Of a stretch of DNA of 5,007 nt, positions 724 through 3,877 are shown piece after piece. Source of the stretch: JBHIBR01 sp046759145 [NCBI: Nitrospinota bacterium] (lineage in GTDB: Bacteria > UBA8248); contig JBHIBR010000165.1 in the NCBI GenBank assembly GCA_046759145.1, positions 1 through 5,007 on the forward strand, written 5' to 3'. Positions within the stretch are counted from its first letter, which is position 1; each line of letters begins with the position of its first letter. The translations under genes and the position numbers were made by a program. Under the pieces are notes generated by a model. The model searched no databases and was not told the origin of the DNA. It saw only the letters and a program-made list of their open reading frames with translations.

Positions 724-1158
724 TCATCGGGCCTCCAGCACCGCCCGGAGCGCTTCCGCGAGGCGGGGTACGGTGGGGAGCCTCTCCAGCTCTTCGGGCG
801 CCACCCAGCGCGCCTCGCGGCTCTCCCAGTCGAGGCGGATGGCGTCTGTCCCGGCGTCGAAGAGGAAGGGATGGACGGTCCAGCTCCGGTCTTCTTCCGG
901 GTCGTAGAAGGTGAAGGGCTCCCCCTCGCGCTGGAGGGAGAGCTGGCTGGCGCTCAGCCCGACCTCTTCCTCCACCTCCCTCAAAGCGCGAGCCAGGGGG
1001 GAGGGGTCCTCGGGCTCCAGGTAGCCCGACACCCCCGACCAGCGCCCCCGGTAGGTCCCCACCCGGCCGCTCCGCCGCAGCAGCAGCACTTTCCCCCGGT
1101 AGCGCAGGAAGGCTGTCACCACCGCGCGTGCCGGGGAAGGGGAACGATTGGAGGGCAT
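724..1158 (-). CDS. Nudix hydrolase
   Basis: A 144-residue protein of the size typical for single-domain Nudix hydrolases, which cleave nucleoside diphosphate-linked compounds (NDP-X) with Mg2+ or Mn2+. It opens with the usual first strand (RAVVTAFLRYRGKVLLLRRS, residues 11-30), then the WSGVSGYLEPED loop. The metal-binding half of the Nudix box, REVEEEVGL, is intact at residues 60-68. The first half is atypical: from G45 the box has D51 in place of the conserved Glu and one extra residue before the REVEEE core. That arrangement recalls Nudix domains I associate with archaeal proteins, some linked to eIF-2B-like domains; this is recollection. The C-terminal REARWVAPEELERLP is the standard family helix. 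The substrate cannot be deduced. The ATG at 1158 has only a weak GGGA upstream. It lies 55 nt downstream of the leuC-like gene on the same strand with no clear terminator between, so co-transcription is plausible. See the finding on the open frame after its stop. Confidence 0.88.
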   Translation of the reverse strand: MPSNRSPSPARAVVTAFLRYRGKVLLLRRSGRVGTYRGRWSGVSGYLEPEDPSPLARALREVEEEVGLSASQLSLQREGEPFTFYDPEEDRSWTVHPFLFDAGTDAIRLDWESREARWVAPEELERLPTVPRLAEALRAVLEAR

Positions 1159-1213: not shown

Positions 1214-2482
1214 TCAGGGCGTAGCCCCCACCTCCTCGGGCGGGGTGATGCGCCCCGTGAGGGCGGAGGCGGCCGCCACCGCCGGGTTGGAGAGGTAGGT
1301 CATGGCCTTGGGCGAGCCCTGGCGGCCGCGGAAGTTGCGGTTGCTGGTGGAAAGGCACACCTCTCCATCGCCCAGCACCCCCATGTAGGCGCCGATGCAG
1401 GGCCCGCAGGTGGGGGGCGAGACGGCCGCCCCGGCCTCCAGGAACACCTCGGTGAGGCCCTCCTTCGCCATCTGGCGGGCGATCTCGGCCGTAGAAGGTA
1501 TCACGACCACCCGCAGGCCCCCGGCCACCTTCTTTCCCCGCAAGACCCGGGCCGCGACCCTGAGGTCCTGGATCCAGCCGTTGGCGCAGGAGCCGATGTA
1601 AACCTGGTCGAGGCGGACGTGGCGAAGCTCCTCCACCGCCTTGACGTTCTCGGGCTTCCAGGGCTCGGCCACGAGGGGCGGGAGCCCCTCGACGTCAAAG
1701 TCGTAGACCCGTTCGTAGTCCGCGTCGCGGTCGCTGTAGAGGGGCTCGAATGGCCGCCTCGCCCGCTCCCGGGCGTAGTCCAGGGTCTTTGCGTCGGGGG
1801 GCACTATCCCGCTCTTTGCCCCCGCCTCGACGGCCATGTTACAAAGGGCAAAGCGCTCCTCGGGCTCCAGCCGGTCCACCGCCGCTCCGGAGAACTCCAT
1901 GGCCTTGTAGGTCGCCCCGCCCACGCCGATCTGGCTGATGGTGTAGAGGATGAGGTCCTTCCCCGTCACCCAGGGCGAGGGAGAGCCCCGGAAGTCAAAG
2001 CGGAGGGTAGGGGGAACTCTCAGCCAGGTCCTCCCGGTCGCGAAGATGGCGGCGATGTCGGTCGAGCCCATGCCCGTGGCGAAAGAGCCCATCCCCCCCG
2101 CCATGCAGGCGTGGCTGTTCCCCCCTACCAGGAGTTCCCCCGGAAGGGCGAGGCCCTGCTCGATGACCAGGGTGTTGTGAATCGCCGCCTCGCCCGCCTC
2201 GTAGAAGCGCACGCCGTACCTCGCACAGGCGTAGCGCAGGGCGGAGATGATGTTCGCCGAGGCGATGTCCTTCCCCGGCTCGTTCACCATGGCGCACACG
2301 AAGAGGCGCTCAGGGTCGAACACGCGCTCCACCCCGTACTCTTCCAGCAGGCGGAAGGTGAGGGGACCGCCCAGGTCGTCGGAATAACTCTGGTCCACCC
2401 GAACCTGGACCAGCTCCCCCGGCCGCACCCCGTCCCGCCCGGCGTGGGCGGCCAGGATCTTCTCCGTGATGGTCATGCCCAT
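1214..2482 (-). CDS. Archaeal-type LeuC/HacA-like dehydratase large subunit (aconitase superfamily) with altered active site
   Basis: The 422-residue length and opening MGMTITEKIL match archaeal-type 3-isopropylmalate or homoaconitate dehydratase large subunits, which use a [4Fe-4S] cluster and need a separate small subunit. Retained: cluster cysteines C299 (SCANG), C359 and C362 (CGPC); N215/E219; H102; S123-H124; and N381, R382, R387 in NRNFRGRQG. Changed by my alignment to classical members: the catalytic Asp-His pair (D100-H101 of mitochondrial aconitase) is M65-V66; the Asp of the DSH motif is N122; the Thr of the HD.TGP motif is G38. The codons read cleanly and the frame is intact, so this is not an obvious pseudogene. 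It may therefore be a paralogue with a different substrate or chemistry rather than the leucine-pathway enzyme, so no symbol is given. No leuD lies beside it. GAGGC sits about 9 nt before ATG 2482; a second ATG at codon 3 has poorer spacing. The Nudix gene follows. Confidence 0.88.
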   Translation of the reverse strand: MGMTITEKILAAHAGRDGVRPGELVQVRVDQSYSDDLGGPLTFRLLEEYGVERVFDPERLFVCAMVNEPGKDIASANIISALRYACARYGVRFYEAGEAAIHNTLVIEQGLALPGELLVGGNSHACMAGGMGSFATGMGSTDIAAIFATGRTWLRVPPTLRFDFRGSPSPWVTGKDLILYTISQIGVGGATYKAMEFSGAAVDRLEPEERFALCNMAVEAGAKSGIVPPDAKTLDYARERARRPFEPLYSDRDADYERVYDFDVEGLPPLVAEPWKPENVKAVEELRHVRLDQVYIGSCANGWIQDLRVAARVLRGKKVAGGLRVVVIPSTAEIARQMAKEGLTEVFLEAGAAVSPPTCGPCIGAYMGVLGDGEVCLSTSNRNFRGRQGSPKAMTYLSNPAVAAASALTGRITPPEEVGATP

Positions 2483-2580: not shown

Positions 2581-2679
2581 TGAATAAGATTTAGGCCGGC
2601 GAATGGGCACGATCGCGACGGGTACGCCCCTTCCGAGCCCGAACCGTAGGGTGAGTTCAAAGATACTGTGACGCCAGAA

Positions 2680-2708
2680 TTGACAAAAATCACAAGCCCG
2701 AGTAGCCT
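2680..2708 (+). promoter_or_regulatory. Possible sigma-70-like promoter of the DUF4760-like gene
   Basis: A perfect -35 hexamer TTGACA (2680-2685) is followed after 17 nt by TAGCCT (2703-2708), which matches the -10 consensus at only three positions. TAGAAT at 2731-2736 is a better -10 but has no -35 at the right distance. The gene almost certainly needs its own promoter, since its upstream neighbour is divergent. Confidence 0.25.
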
Positions 2709-2767
2709 CGGGGCGACGGCCGGTCACCAATAGAATGCTTTAGGGGAAGCTATCCCCGCCTTAGTTC

Positions 2768-2818
2768 CCGAAGCTCTGGGCGTGACTGGCCAGTCAGGCG
2801 CCTGGGGCAGTGCTTCGG
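2768..2818 (+). promoter_or_regulatory. Long imperfect hairpin in the leader of the DUF4760-like gene
   Basis: CCGAAGC (2768-2774) pairs with GCTTCGG (2812-2818). Inside it, TCTGGGCG (2775-2782) can pair with CGCCTGGG (2799-2806) allowing G-T wobbles, and at the tip sits the perfect 14-bp palindrome TGACTGGCCAGTCA (2783-2796). Unpaired bases are a GG bulge (2797-2798) and a 5-nt bulge (2807-2811). A second palindrome, CAGGCGCCTG (2795-2804), overlaps the first. The hairpin ends 2 nt before the likely ribosome binding site at 2821. It could be a translational control element, an attenuator, or, as DNA, a dimeric regulator's operator. Confidence 0.5.
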
Positions 2819-2820
2819 AC

Positions 2821-2826
2821 GGGGGA
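2821..2826 (+). promoter_or_regulatory. Ribosome binding site that decides the DUF4760-like start
   Basis: GGGGGA stands 7 nt before the GTG at 2834, a good Shine-Dalgarno position. The earlier in-frame GTG at 2810 lies inside the leader hairpin and has only a GGGG placed too close to it. The later start is therefore preferred. Confidence 0.55.
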
Positions 2827-2833
2827 CTGCCGA

Positions 2834-3481
2834 GTGGGCAACCGGGCACCTGAAACGCCGGTGCAATTAACGCTCCGCCTACCACCCCGGCTGCTTGTCT
2901 TCCTAGGAATAGGTTGGGCGCTCACGCTACTGGCCTTCATCATTGTGCCAACTTGGCGGCCCGTTATCATCTTCGCAGCTTCATCCCTGGGAGGAATCGC
3001 GACTTTGGGCGGAGCATTCTACCTGGCGCGGGGTTTAGTGCAGACGGCCCAACAACGCGAAAGGGCTGAGCAGATCGCAGTCGAACAACGGGAAAGAGAT
3101 CAGCGCCGGCGGCAGATCGAGGCCGCTTTCCACTATATGGAACGTTGGAACAACCCCCAATTTTATCACGTGCGCTCTGCATTCAGGGAAATCCTTCGGG
3201 TGGGCATGGCCGAGACAGAGGGAACGAGGCGCGTCATGGACAGGCTAGCGGCAGACGACTCCCTCCGCTCGAATGTAATGGACGTGATGAACTTCTTCGA
3301 AGAAGTAGCTGTGGCTATTGACCTTCAGATCGCGGACGAGGAACTATTGAGACGGGTCTTCCGGGGGATTCTGAGTTCGCTTTGGATGACGCTCGAACCT
3401 TTCGTAAACCAGCGTCGGACGATGCTACGCAATCCCCGAGTGTTTGTAGAATGTGAGGCATTGCACAAGCGCTGGGCGTAG
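2834..3481 (+). CDS. DUF4760-like membrane protein of unknown function
   Basis: Taking GTG 2834 as start gives 215 residues (223 from GTG 2810). Two hydrophobic segments near the N-terminus, about residues 19-39 (around LLVFLGIGWALTLLAFIIVP) and 44-64 (around VIIFAASSLGGIATLGGAFY), are joined by a short PTWR turn. A very charged Q/R/E-rich helix, likely coiled coil, follows at about 68-98. The soluble C-terminal domain has features I associate with DUF4760: ERWNNPQFYHVRSAFREI, then NFFEEVAVAIDLQIADEELLRRVFRGI, then an FVECEALHKRW ending. This suggests a hairpin-anchored protein with a cytoplasmic helical domain. The family has no established function. Codon use is less GC-biased than the neighbours (for example GTA, CTA and TTG codons occur), and the gene stands alone between a hairpin and its own terminator. 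That fits horizontal acquisition. Coding status is firm; the family call is by recognition of motifs and is fairly confident. Confidence 0.82.
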   Translation: MGNRAPETPVQLTLRLPPRLLVFLGIGWALTLLAFIIVPTWRPVIIFAASSLGGIATLGGAFYLARGLVQTAQQRERAEQIAVEQRERDQRRRQIEAAFHYMERWNNPQFYHVRSAFREILRVGMAETEGTRRVMDRLAADDSLRSNVMDVMNFFEEVAVAIDLQIADEELLRRVFRGILSSLWMTLEPFVNQRRTMLRNPRVFVECEALHKRWA

Positions 3482-3488
3482 GATCGAA

Positions 3489-3516
3489 AAAGGCTACCCT
3501 TCGCCGGGTAGCCTTT
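3489..3516 (+). terminator. Intrinsic terminator of the DUF4760-like gene
   Basis: AAAGGCTACCC (3489-3499) and GGGTAGCCTTT (3506-3516) form a perfect 11-bp stem with the 6-nt loop TTCGCC, starting 7 nt after the stop codon. The right arm ends in TTT followed by CACTT, so the T-run is short, but the A-rich left arm and compact stem are typical. Confidence 0.8.
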
Positions 3517-3877
3517 CACTTGGCCAAACATCGAAACTCGTTCTCTCAAACACCCGTATCAAATTCGCGCCAAATCATTCCGTCCCTCCTCGGGAAGGGA
3601 GGCTACCAATGCTTTCGACTTGCTTCTTCTCCCTTCAGCAATACATAATTTAGCGCGTTCGCTTGAATCCGTCAAGCAAAAAGCGCGCCGTTTGCGAGGA
3701 ACAGATCATTGCCTCCGGGCACCGGGTCGACTCCACCGGGGACGGCCGCGGATCTTTATTGGGACAGCCGCTCTGGCCAGGCTCTGGTAACGAACCTTCC
3801 GCTTCGGGCGGAGAAGGCAAATGCCGGCCCGGAGGCCGCCCCTTTGCGCTCCAACGGGCCCGGTGCCACCCTCTCCG
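3517..3877. other. Gene-free stretch between convergent genes
   Basis: No convincing gene is present. Up to about 3700 the sequence has low GC for this window; it then returns to high GC. A 14-codon ORF at 3609-3653 follows a purine-rich GGGAAGGGAGG but is too short to support. Minor hairpins are GCTTGA(ATCCG)TCAAGC at 3661-3677 and TCCGC(TTCGG)GCGGA at 3798-3812; the latter could contribute to termination of the minus-strand PfpI gene, but no T-run follows it on that strand. The octamer AGGCTACC of the terminator stem recurs at 3600-3607. Confidence 0.5.
3653..3688. repeat. Two-part inverted repeat (stem-loop)
   Basis: The inner stem is GCTTGA (3661-3666) with TCAAGC (3672-3677) around a 5-nt loop. 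GCGCG (3653-3657) can pair outside it with CGCGC (3684-3688) across an A-rich internal loop. It lies where the low-GC central segment gives way to high-GC sequence. Its function is unknown; it may be a weak terminator or an insertion remnant. Confidence 0.35.

What the first reader, a model, noticed from the sequence alone, without database searches (positions are those of the whole stretch)
2117..2290. LeuC/HacA-like protein lacking the catalytic Asp-His pair but keeping the iron-sulphur site
Seen: C299, C359, C362 and the NRNFRGRQG arginines are intact, yet the position of the invariant DH pair (normally xDHxxPxKD) reads MVNEPGKD (codons 2285-2290 give Met-Val), GTDSHT reads GGNSHA (N122), and HDxTGP reads DDLGGP. 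Known: in aconitase D100-H101 and D165 organise proton transfer to the substrate hydroxyl. Inference: the cluster and carboxylate grip persist while the acid-base machinery is remodelled, so this may be a distinct dehydratase, an isomerase for another substrate, or a non-catalytic paralogue.
Basis: partly seen in the sequence, partly recalled or inferred. Interest (0 to 1): 0.68.

Follow-up and report, generated by a model that had tools for sequence, protein, structure and literature searches.

The report
LeuC-like protein without its catalytic histidines
A bacterial relative of the leucine-pathway enzyme LeuC keeps the residues for its fold, its iron-sulphur site and its acid-gripping arginines but lacks the histidines and aspartates thought to do the chemistry, so it probably does something other than what its automatic annotation says.

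Summary
Window 1214-2482 (-) encodes an intact 422-aa LeuC/HacA-type large subunit. The aconitase D100-H101 pair reads M65-V66 and D165 reads N122. All three cluster cysteines and S166, H167, N258, E262, N446, R447 and R452 are kept. Among 143 distinct homologues of 300 aa or more, the H101 and H147 columns are His in 143 of 143. Against 76 non-redundant relatives the window protein breaks 3 of 13 near-invariant active-site columns but 1 of 47 others (p 0.029; weaker at looser thresholds), so I read targeted remodelling, not decay. AlphaFold gives pLDDT 93 and the LeuC/HacA fold. It fails the LEU2 and HacA cut-offs but passes the looser subfamily ones. I read it as an iron-sulphur, carboxylate-binding paralogue that cannot run the canonical dehydration. 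Whether it is a sensor or partner protein, or a lyase that needs no His acid, is open. No sequence sharing its motifs turned up in what I could search; small subunit, genome and organism are unknown.

The parts
1214..2482 (-). LeuC/HacA-type aconitase-superfamily large subunit, 422 aa, catalytic acid-base residues replaced
   Evidence: GC at codon position 3 is 0.912, in line with most neighbouring genes
2285..2290 (-). M65-V66 at the place of the catalytic D100-H101 pair
   Evidence: His at V66 column in 143 of 143 relatives
2174..2179 (-). H102-N103; N103 lies in the H147 column
   Evidence: His in 143 of 143 relatives; one search aligns H102 instead, with gaps
2117..2119 (-). N122 at the place of D165 (GADSHT reads GGNSHA)
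   Evidence: D in 142 of 143, G in 1
2378..2380 (-). D35 at the place of Q72 (Asn in most relatives)
   Evidence: N 129, H 5, T 4, Q 4, I 1
2111..2116 (-). S123-H124, kept S166-H167
1586..1588 (-). C299, kept cluster cysteine (C358)
1397..1408 (-). C359 and C362, kept cluster cysteines (C421, C424)
1322..1342 (-). N381, R382, R387 in NRNFRGR, kept carboxylate grip (N446, R447, R452)
1826..1840 (-). N215 and E219, kept (N258, E262)
724..1158 (-). NUDIX hydrolase gene 55 bases downstream on the same strand, possibly cotranscribed
   Evidence: link to function is inference only

Best explanation
It is a functional paralogue of the isopropylmalate/homoaconitate dehydratase large subunit that still folds normally, still carries a [4Fe-4S] cluster with an open iron and still grips a small carboxylate, but has given up the canonical dehydration/hydration step. 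The D100-H101 acid is replaced by Met-Val and the H147-D165 partners at the open iron by Asn-Asn. I think it most likely works as a ligand- and cluster-responsive binding protein (a sensor or a regulatory/partner large subunit) rather than as an alpha-hydroxyacid dehydratase. Shown: the residues kept and lost, a confidently predicted fold, and conservation of the scaffold. Inferred: cluster occupancy, ligand binding, loss of activity, regulatory role.
For: Five of 15 active-site columns in domains 1-3 are replaced and ten kept; no other of 144 aligned sequences deviates at more than three. Near-invariant columns broken: 3 of 13 active-site against 1 of 47 others at the 97% threshold, Fisher p 0.029. 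Fold predicted intact: pLDDT 93.4, Z 57.1 / 1.5 A to MJ1003 and 54.0 / 2.0 A to MJ0499. PMC8184944 (passages): H101 protonates the leaving hydroxyl, and the fourth iron sits in a network of D165, H167 and H147. End branch 1.61 against a median of 0.46. Falls below LEU2 (489.5 against 610.65) and HacA_Meth (398.9 against 550) but above the subfamily cut-offs.
Against: At 90% and 80% conservation thresholds the active-site enrichment weakens (p 0.075 and 0.062). In the earlier count (64 relatives, another alignment) the protein's total of breaks, 5 of 66, was not the highest: L118 had 6 of 70, L106 5 of 69, and a fragment 22 of 71. Its branch is long but seven other rows of the tree also exceed 1.5. 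It rests on one sequence with no sister. Keeping S166, H167, N258, E262, N446, R447 and R452 fits an enzyme at least as well as a sensor. AcnX shows that the superfamily can replace H101 by an unrelated Lys and H147 by Cys and stay catalytic (PMC8184944, passages). PMC5144071 (passages) says that mutating the aconitase His at its site 8, which it sets against the AcnX Cys, does not markedly change activity. No regulatory partner is visible in the window.
Confidence: 0.43

Rival explanations
1. A lyase or isomerase with new chemistry: the cluster still acts as Lewis acid and a separate small subunit still supplies the Ser base, but the substrate loses a better leaving group than hydroxide, or only a double bond moves, so no His acid is needed. 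The hydrophobic Met-Val makes room for the new group.
For: Ten of 15 active-site columns are kept, with 46 of 47 other near-invariant columns. AcnX is a precedent for re-invented acid-base residues (PMC8184944, passages). Relatives in other operons suggest the family moves to new substrates: tricarballylate-type cluster, CoA-transferase and HMG-CoA-lyase-type cluster.
Against: No small-subunit frame in the window and no obvious catabolic neighbours. AcnX type I keeps an acid at the D165 place (PMC8184944); here it is an amide.
Confidence: 0.33
2. Still an ordinary dehydratase: H102, one residue before N103, stands in for H147, D35 or another group stands in for the acid, and the reaction is canonical but slow or altered in specificity.
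For: phmmer pairs H102 with H147; the Asp of the DH pair is already Ser in 31 of 143 relatives, presumed active.
Against: The H101 column is His in 143 of 143, and the only His of this protein are 13, 102, 124 and 288; D165 is also lost.
Confidence: 0.12
3. A decaying gene or a sequence/assembly artefact.
For: No sequence with the same motifs found; long branch; no genome held for the window.
Against: Open frame of full length, codon composition like most neighbours (GC3 0.912; neighbours 0.882-0.970 apart from the DUF4760 gene at 0.637), no frameshift, 46 of 47 other near-invariant columns kept; M-V from D/S-H needs several base changes in two adjacent codons.
Confidence: 0.1

Closest known systems
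MJ0499 isopropylmalate/citramalate isomerase large subunit (PDB 4kp1, 4nqy)
   Same: Fold (Z 54.0, 43% identity), three cluster cysteines, NRNFRGR grip
   Different: MJ0499 has DH, CH and GADSHT where this has MV, HN (depending on the alignment) and GGNSHA
MJ1003 homoaconitase large subunit (PDB 4kp2)
   Same: Fold (Z 57.1, 38% identity)
   Different: DH pair and GGDSHT present there, MV and GGNSHA here
NCBIfam PRK00402 / hacA_fam / IPMI_arch subfamilies
   Same: Scores above all three cut-offs: 524.4/385, 508.5/385.7, 460.9/410.15
   Different: Below the function-naming models LEU2 and HacA_Meth; 7 of 8 genome-contig relatives tested exceed LEU2
Aconitase X (cis-3-hydroxyproline and phosphomevalonate dehydratases)
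   Same: A branch of the same superfamily in which the roles of H101 and H147 are taken by other residues (type I, PMC8184944, passages)
   Different: AcnX type I has other cluster ligands and keeps Glu at the D165 place; this keeps the standard ligands and has Asn; fold match only Z 19.4-19.9
Fungal AcoB, aconitase-family protein inactive on the substrates tested
   Same: Precedent for a family member with no activity found (PMC3556520, passages)
   Different: AcoB keeps virtually all catalytic residues (same passages)

Membership tests
Aconitase superfamily (Pfam PF00330) | Profile score and fold of domains 1-3 | tested here: met
   307.9 bits against 28.7; Z 42.3-57.1 to LeuC, HacA, mitochondrial aconitase and AcnB structures
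Aconitase superfamily, non-AcnX members | Three cluster cysteines | tested here: met
   C299, C359, C362
Aconitase superfamily, non-AcnX members | D100-H101, H147, D165 | tested here: not met
   M65, V66, N103, N122; the N103 assignment depends on the alignment; the Asp of the pair also varies in 32 of 143 relatives
Aconitase superfamily, non-AcnX members | S166, N446, R447, R452 and H167, N258, E262 | tested here: met
   S123, N381, R382, R387, H124, N215, E219
LEU2 3-isopropylmalate dehydratase large subunit (TIGR02083) | Equivalog cut-off 610.65 bits | tested here: not met
   489.5 bits; control: 7 of 8 genome-contig relatives pass, the eighth scores 608.5; two plasmid paralogues with other contexts score 495.1 and 460.6
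HacA_Meth homoaconitase (NF040615) | Equivalog cut-off 550 bits | tested here: not met
   398.9 bits; the ten relatives also fall below it
PRK00402 / hacA_fam / IPMI_arch subfamilies | Subfamily cut-offs | tested here: met
Isopropylmalate isomerase (LeuCD) | Small subunit LeuD supplying the Ser base | tested here: inconclusive
   No LeuD-like frame in the window, but only 36 of 80 relatives had one directly downstream by the script's rule (2 of 80 had no room; in six of the remaining 42 a LeuD-bearing frame overlaps or lies within about 410 bases), and the genome is not held
Isopropylmalate isomerase (LeuCD) | Activity on 3-isopropylmalate | not testable with these tools
   -
Aconitase X | AcnX cluster-ligand pattern and acidic residue at the D165 place | tested here: not met
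   All three standard cysteines present, N122 at D165; AcnX pattern as described in PMC8184944 and PMC10040528 (passages)

The most novel reading that the evidence does not exclude
A new reaction type on the aconitase scaffold: a [4Fe-4S] Lewis-acid enzyme with the standard cluster ligands and carboxylate grip but no His acid and no acidic partner at the open iron, eliminating a leaving group better than hydroxide or shifting a double bond.
Probability: 0.22. Interest if true: 0.75.

Novelty: new variant of a known kind. Interest (0 to 1): 0.5.

Why it matters
By the subfamily models it passes, automatic annotation would call this an aconitase/3-isopropylmalate dehydratase large subunit, which its active site contradicts. 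It would be a natural separation of the cluster and carboxylate-binding functions of aconitases from their acid-base chemistry, and so a ready-made test of what the open iron needs. PMC8184944 (passages) describes 20 active-site residues as conserved in aconitase enzymes other than AcnX (its text says more than 15 are identical); this protein is outside AcnX and departs at five of the fifteen positions I place in the large subunit, though two of the five (Q72, D100) also vary among ordinary relatives.

Tried and rejected
Genome searches: 95 genomes of the phylum of a Rokubacteria locus with the whole protein (20 of 95 matched, 25 places); then residues 28-135 at E limits from 1e-24 to 1e-19: 0 of 247, 0 of 3 (29), 20 of 301 (31; 15 of the 20 places fetched, 5 not read), 10 of 346 (32), 2 of 43 (33), 1 of 246 (34), 0 of 77 (46), 1 of 198 (47, sample overlapping), 2 of 388 (54). 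The fetched hits have His at the V66 column (the one fragment under 300 aa, L146, left out, reads ADH, EH and GADSHT). The phyla are inferred from the titles of the loci that gave the handles; Pseudomonadota, Acidobacteriota and others were not reached. Viral contigs: no relative. Plasmids: 564 records with a match, all under 60% identity, 33 with the fragment; eight records were read, and their nine proteins all carry the His. Phage records: 37 with a match, all under 60% identity, none read for the motif.

Rows dropped: the 143 homologues are distinct hit sequences of 300 aa or more from 149 loci; 7 identical rows and 1 fragment were left out.

False lead: local blastp rows seemed to show four Rokubacteria-phylum proteins (L094-L097) with a VN motif in place of DH. 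One search showed they read VNDHFVPAKD, with a normal DH; the motif was a gap artefact, and the motif columns are not used as evidence.

Taxonomy from the MreB fragment: 38 of 41 genomes matched, best identity 50%, so the organism's phylum stays unknown.

Orphan status as evidence: rejected, because many ordinary relatives also lack an adjacent small subunit. Promoter/terminator scan (0 promoters; 1 terminator-like site against 1.1 expected), Rfam (0 matches) and PADLOC (none for this protein; one weak 20.5-bit match for the NUDIX neighbour) added nothing for this gene.

Literature: searches. By title and start of abstract, no listed paper is about a LeuC-type protein lacking H101; two searches returned no paper. 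The library lacks most subscription journals. Four papers were seen as passages only: PMC8184944, PMC5144071, PMC10040528, PMC3556520. The list of fifteen domain 1-3 active-site positions is recalled; twelve were placed by counting along the aconitase alignment, while Q72, D100 and H101 lie before its start and were placed through the LeuC-type alignments and recall.

Full report
What is there. The window's minus strand 1214-2482 is an open frame of 422 aa. Its NCBIfam matches include PRK00402 (524.4 bits, cut-off 385), hacA_fam (508.5, 385.7) and IPMI_arch (460.9, 410.15), all passed; the function-naming models LEU2 (489.5, 610.65) and HacA_Meth (398.9, 550) are not. Pfam gives Aconitase; the closest solved sequences are the MJ0499 and MJ1003 large subunits. 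Codon-position-3 GC is 0.912, against 0.928 for the MreB fragment, 0.882 for NUDIX, 0.944 for PfpI, 0.970 for the cupin and 0.637 for the DUF4760 gene, so it looks like a native, maintained gene.

The active site. I aligned the protein with 143 distinct homologues of 300 aa or more drawn from the loci fetched (dropped rows listed). The fifteen active-site positions of domains 1-3 (list recalled; twelve placed by counting along the aconitase alignment) read: Q72 D35, D100 M65, H101 V66, H147 N103, D165 N122 (replaced); S166 S123, H167 H124, N258 N215, E262 E219, C358 C299, C421 C359, C424 C362, N446 N381, R447 R382, R452 R387 (kept). In the homologues H101 and H147 are His in 143 of 143, D165 is D in 142 of 143, and D100 is D in 111, S in 31, E in 1. 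By the script's 5% rule the window protein deviates at five positions; the next two sequences deviate at three, and 126 of the 144 at none. The H147 assignment is the least secure: the multiple alignments place N103 there, whereas phmmer places H102 there with gaps.

Targeted change or decay. With 76 relatives under 80% identity to each other, the window protein breaks 3 of 13 active-site columns conserved at 97% or more and 1 of 47 others (Fisher p 0.029). At 90% the figures are 3 of 13 and 6 of 95 (p 0.075), at 80% 5 of 15 and 22 of 158 (p 0.062). So the enrichment is nominal at the strictest threshold and short of 0.05 at the two others. An earlier count on another alignment and 64 relatives gave 5 of 66 broken (H66V, G100A, H103N, D122N, T127M); three other rows there had as many or more breaks in all, one of them a fragment. 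No relative had more active-site breaks than the window protein at any of the three thresholds, while some kept far fewer of the other columns, for example 26 of 100 broken in L113 at 90%. The extra breaks at 90% are G100A, T125A, T127M, A133S, G365A and M388Q, three of them in or beside the two changed motifs. A frameshift is excluded by reading the other frames.

Structure. AlphaFold2 on 39 sequences gives mean pLDDT 93.4, pTM 0.92. The fold is that of an ordinary LeuC/HacA large subunit. The AlphaFold alignment consists of ordinary relatives, so it says little about side-chain placement in the changed loops, and no coordinates were available to me.

Place in the family. In a quick IQ-TREE tree of 63 rows the protein is a lone end branch of length 1.61 (median 0.46) near the base of the LeuC-type rows; seven other rows, mostly plasmid paralogues, also exceed 1.5. 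The best identity in that tree is 55%, to L145 from the phylum of an Armatimonadota locus. The placement is open. No sequence with the same motifs was found in the collections I could search (details and gaps under Tried and rejected).

How it may work. In aconitase a Ser is the base, the cluster is the Lewis acid, H101 protonates the leaving hydroxyl, and D165, H167 and H147 surround the fourth iron (PMC8184944, passages). Here the base would lie on another, unseen subunit, the iron site and the carboxylate grip are kept, but the proton donor is gone and two partners at the iron are amides. A canonical dehydration is therefore unlikely. That the ten other active-site residues and 46 of 47 further near-invariant columns are kept argues that something still binds in the pocket. 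I favour a ligand- and cluster-responsive binding protein slightly over a lyase or isomerase that needs no His acid. [quoted passage not shown] PMC10040528 (passages) reports that phosphomevalonate dehydratase, an AcnX, has a Glu conserved among AcnX enzymes and uses a [4Fe-4S] cluster held by three cysteines. PMC3556520 (passages) reports fungal AcoB proteins that are inactive with either substrate tested although virtually all catalytic residues are kept, so absence of activity in this superfamily is not unheard of.

Limits. One sequence, no genome, no organism, no small subunit, no sister sequence. Cluster, ligand and function are all inferred.

Noticed in passing
2600-3800: Stretch of lower GC (about 0.55-0.60 against 0.67-0.71 on either side) holding a DUF4760 gene at 2810-3478 (+) with GC3 0.637; may be acquired DNA beside the LeuC-like gene.
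   Followed up: partly
L118 (G090) frame 4378-6513 (-): Another LeuC-type relative, from a genome of the Rokubacteria-locus phylum, deviating at three active-site columns: Q at Q72 (rare among relatives), E at D100 and G at D165 (ANGSHT), with both His kept.
   Followed up: no
L108 5998-9100: Skermanella mucosa plasmid pSM-2 carries two different LeuC-type large-subunit genes in tandem before one small-subunit gene.
   Followed up: no
L106 3385-9951: Hydrogenophaga plasmid cluster with tricarballylate dehydrogenase TcuA, LeuC-type large and small subunits, a PrpF-domain protein and tripartite tricarboxylate transporter proteins; suggests a LeuCD-type pair used on aconitate-like acids.
   Followed up: no
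L111 4784-10684: Peribacillus plasmid cluster: CoA-transferase, LeuC/LeuD-type pair, HMG-CoA-lyase-type protein, Asp/Glu racemase, tartrate dehydrogenase.
   Followed up: no
L001-L010, L032, L074 and others: 31 of 143 LeuC-type relatives, including Aquificota and Rokubacteria, have Ser-His instead of Asp-His at the catalytic pair.
   Followed up: partly
3-473: C-terminal part of an MreB gene, at most 50% identical to MreB of the 41 genomes tested (38 matched).
   Followed up: partly
phage records MT837267, MT837772, MT835515 and others: Records named Bacteriophage sp. from human faeces encode full-length LeuC-type matches; bacterial DNA in phage records is likely.
   Followed up: no
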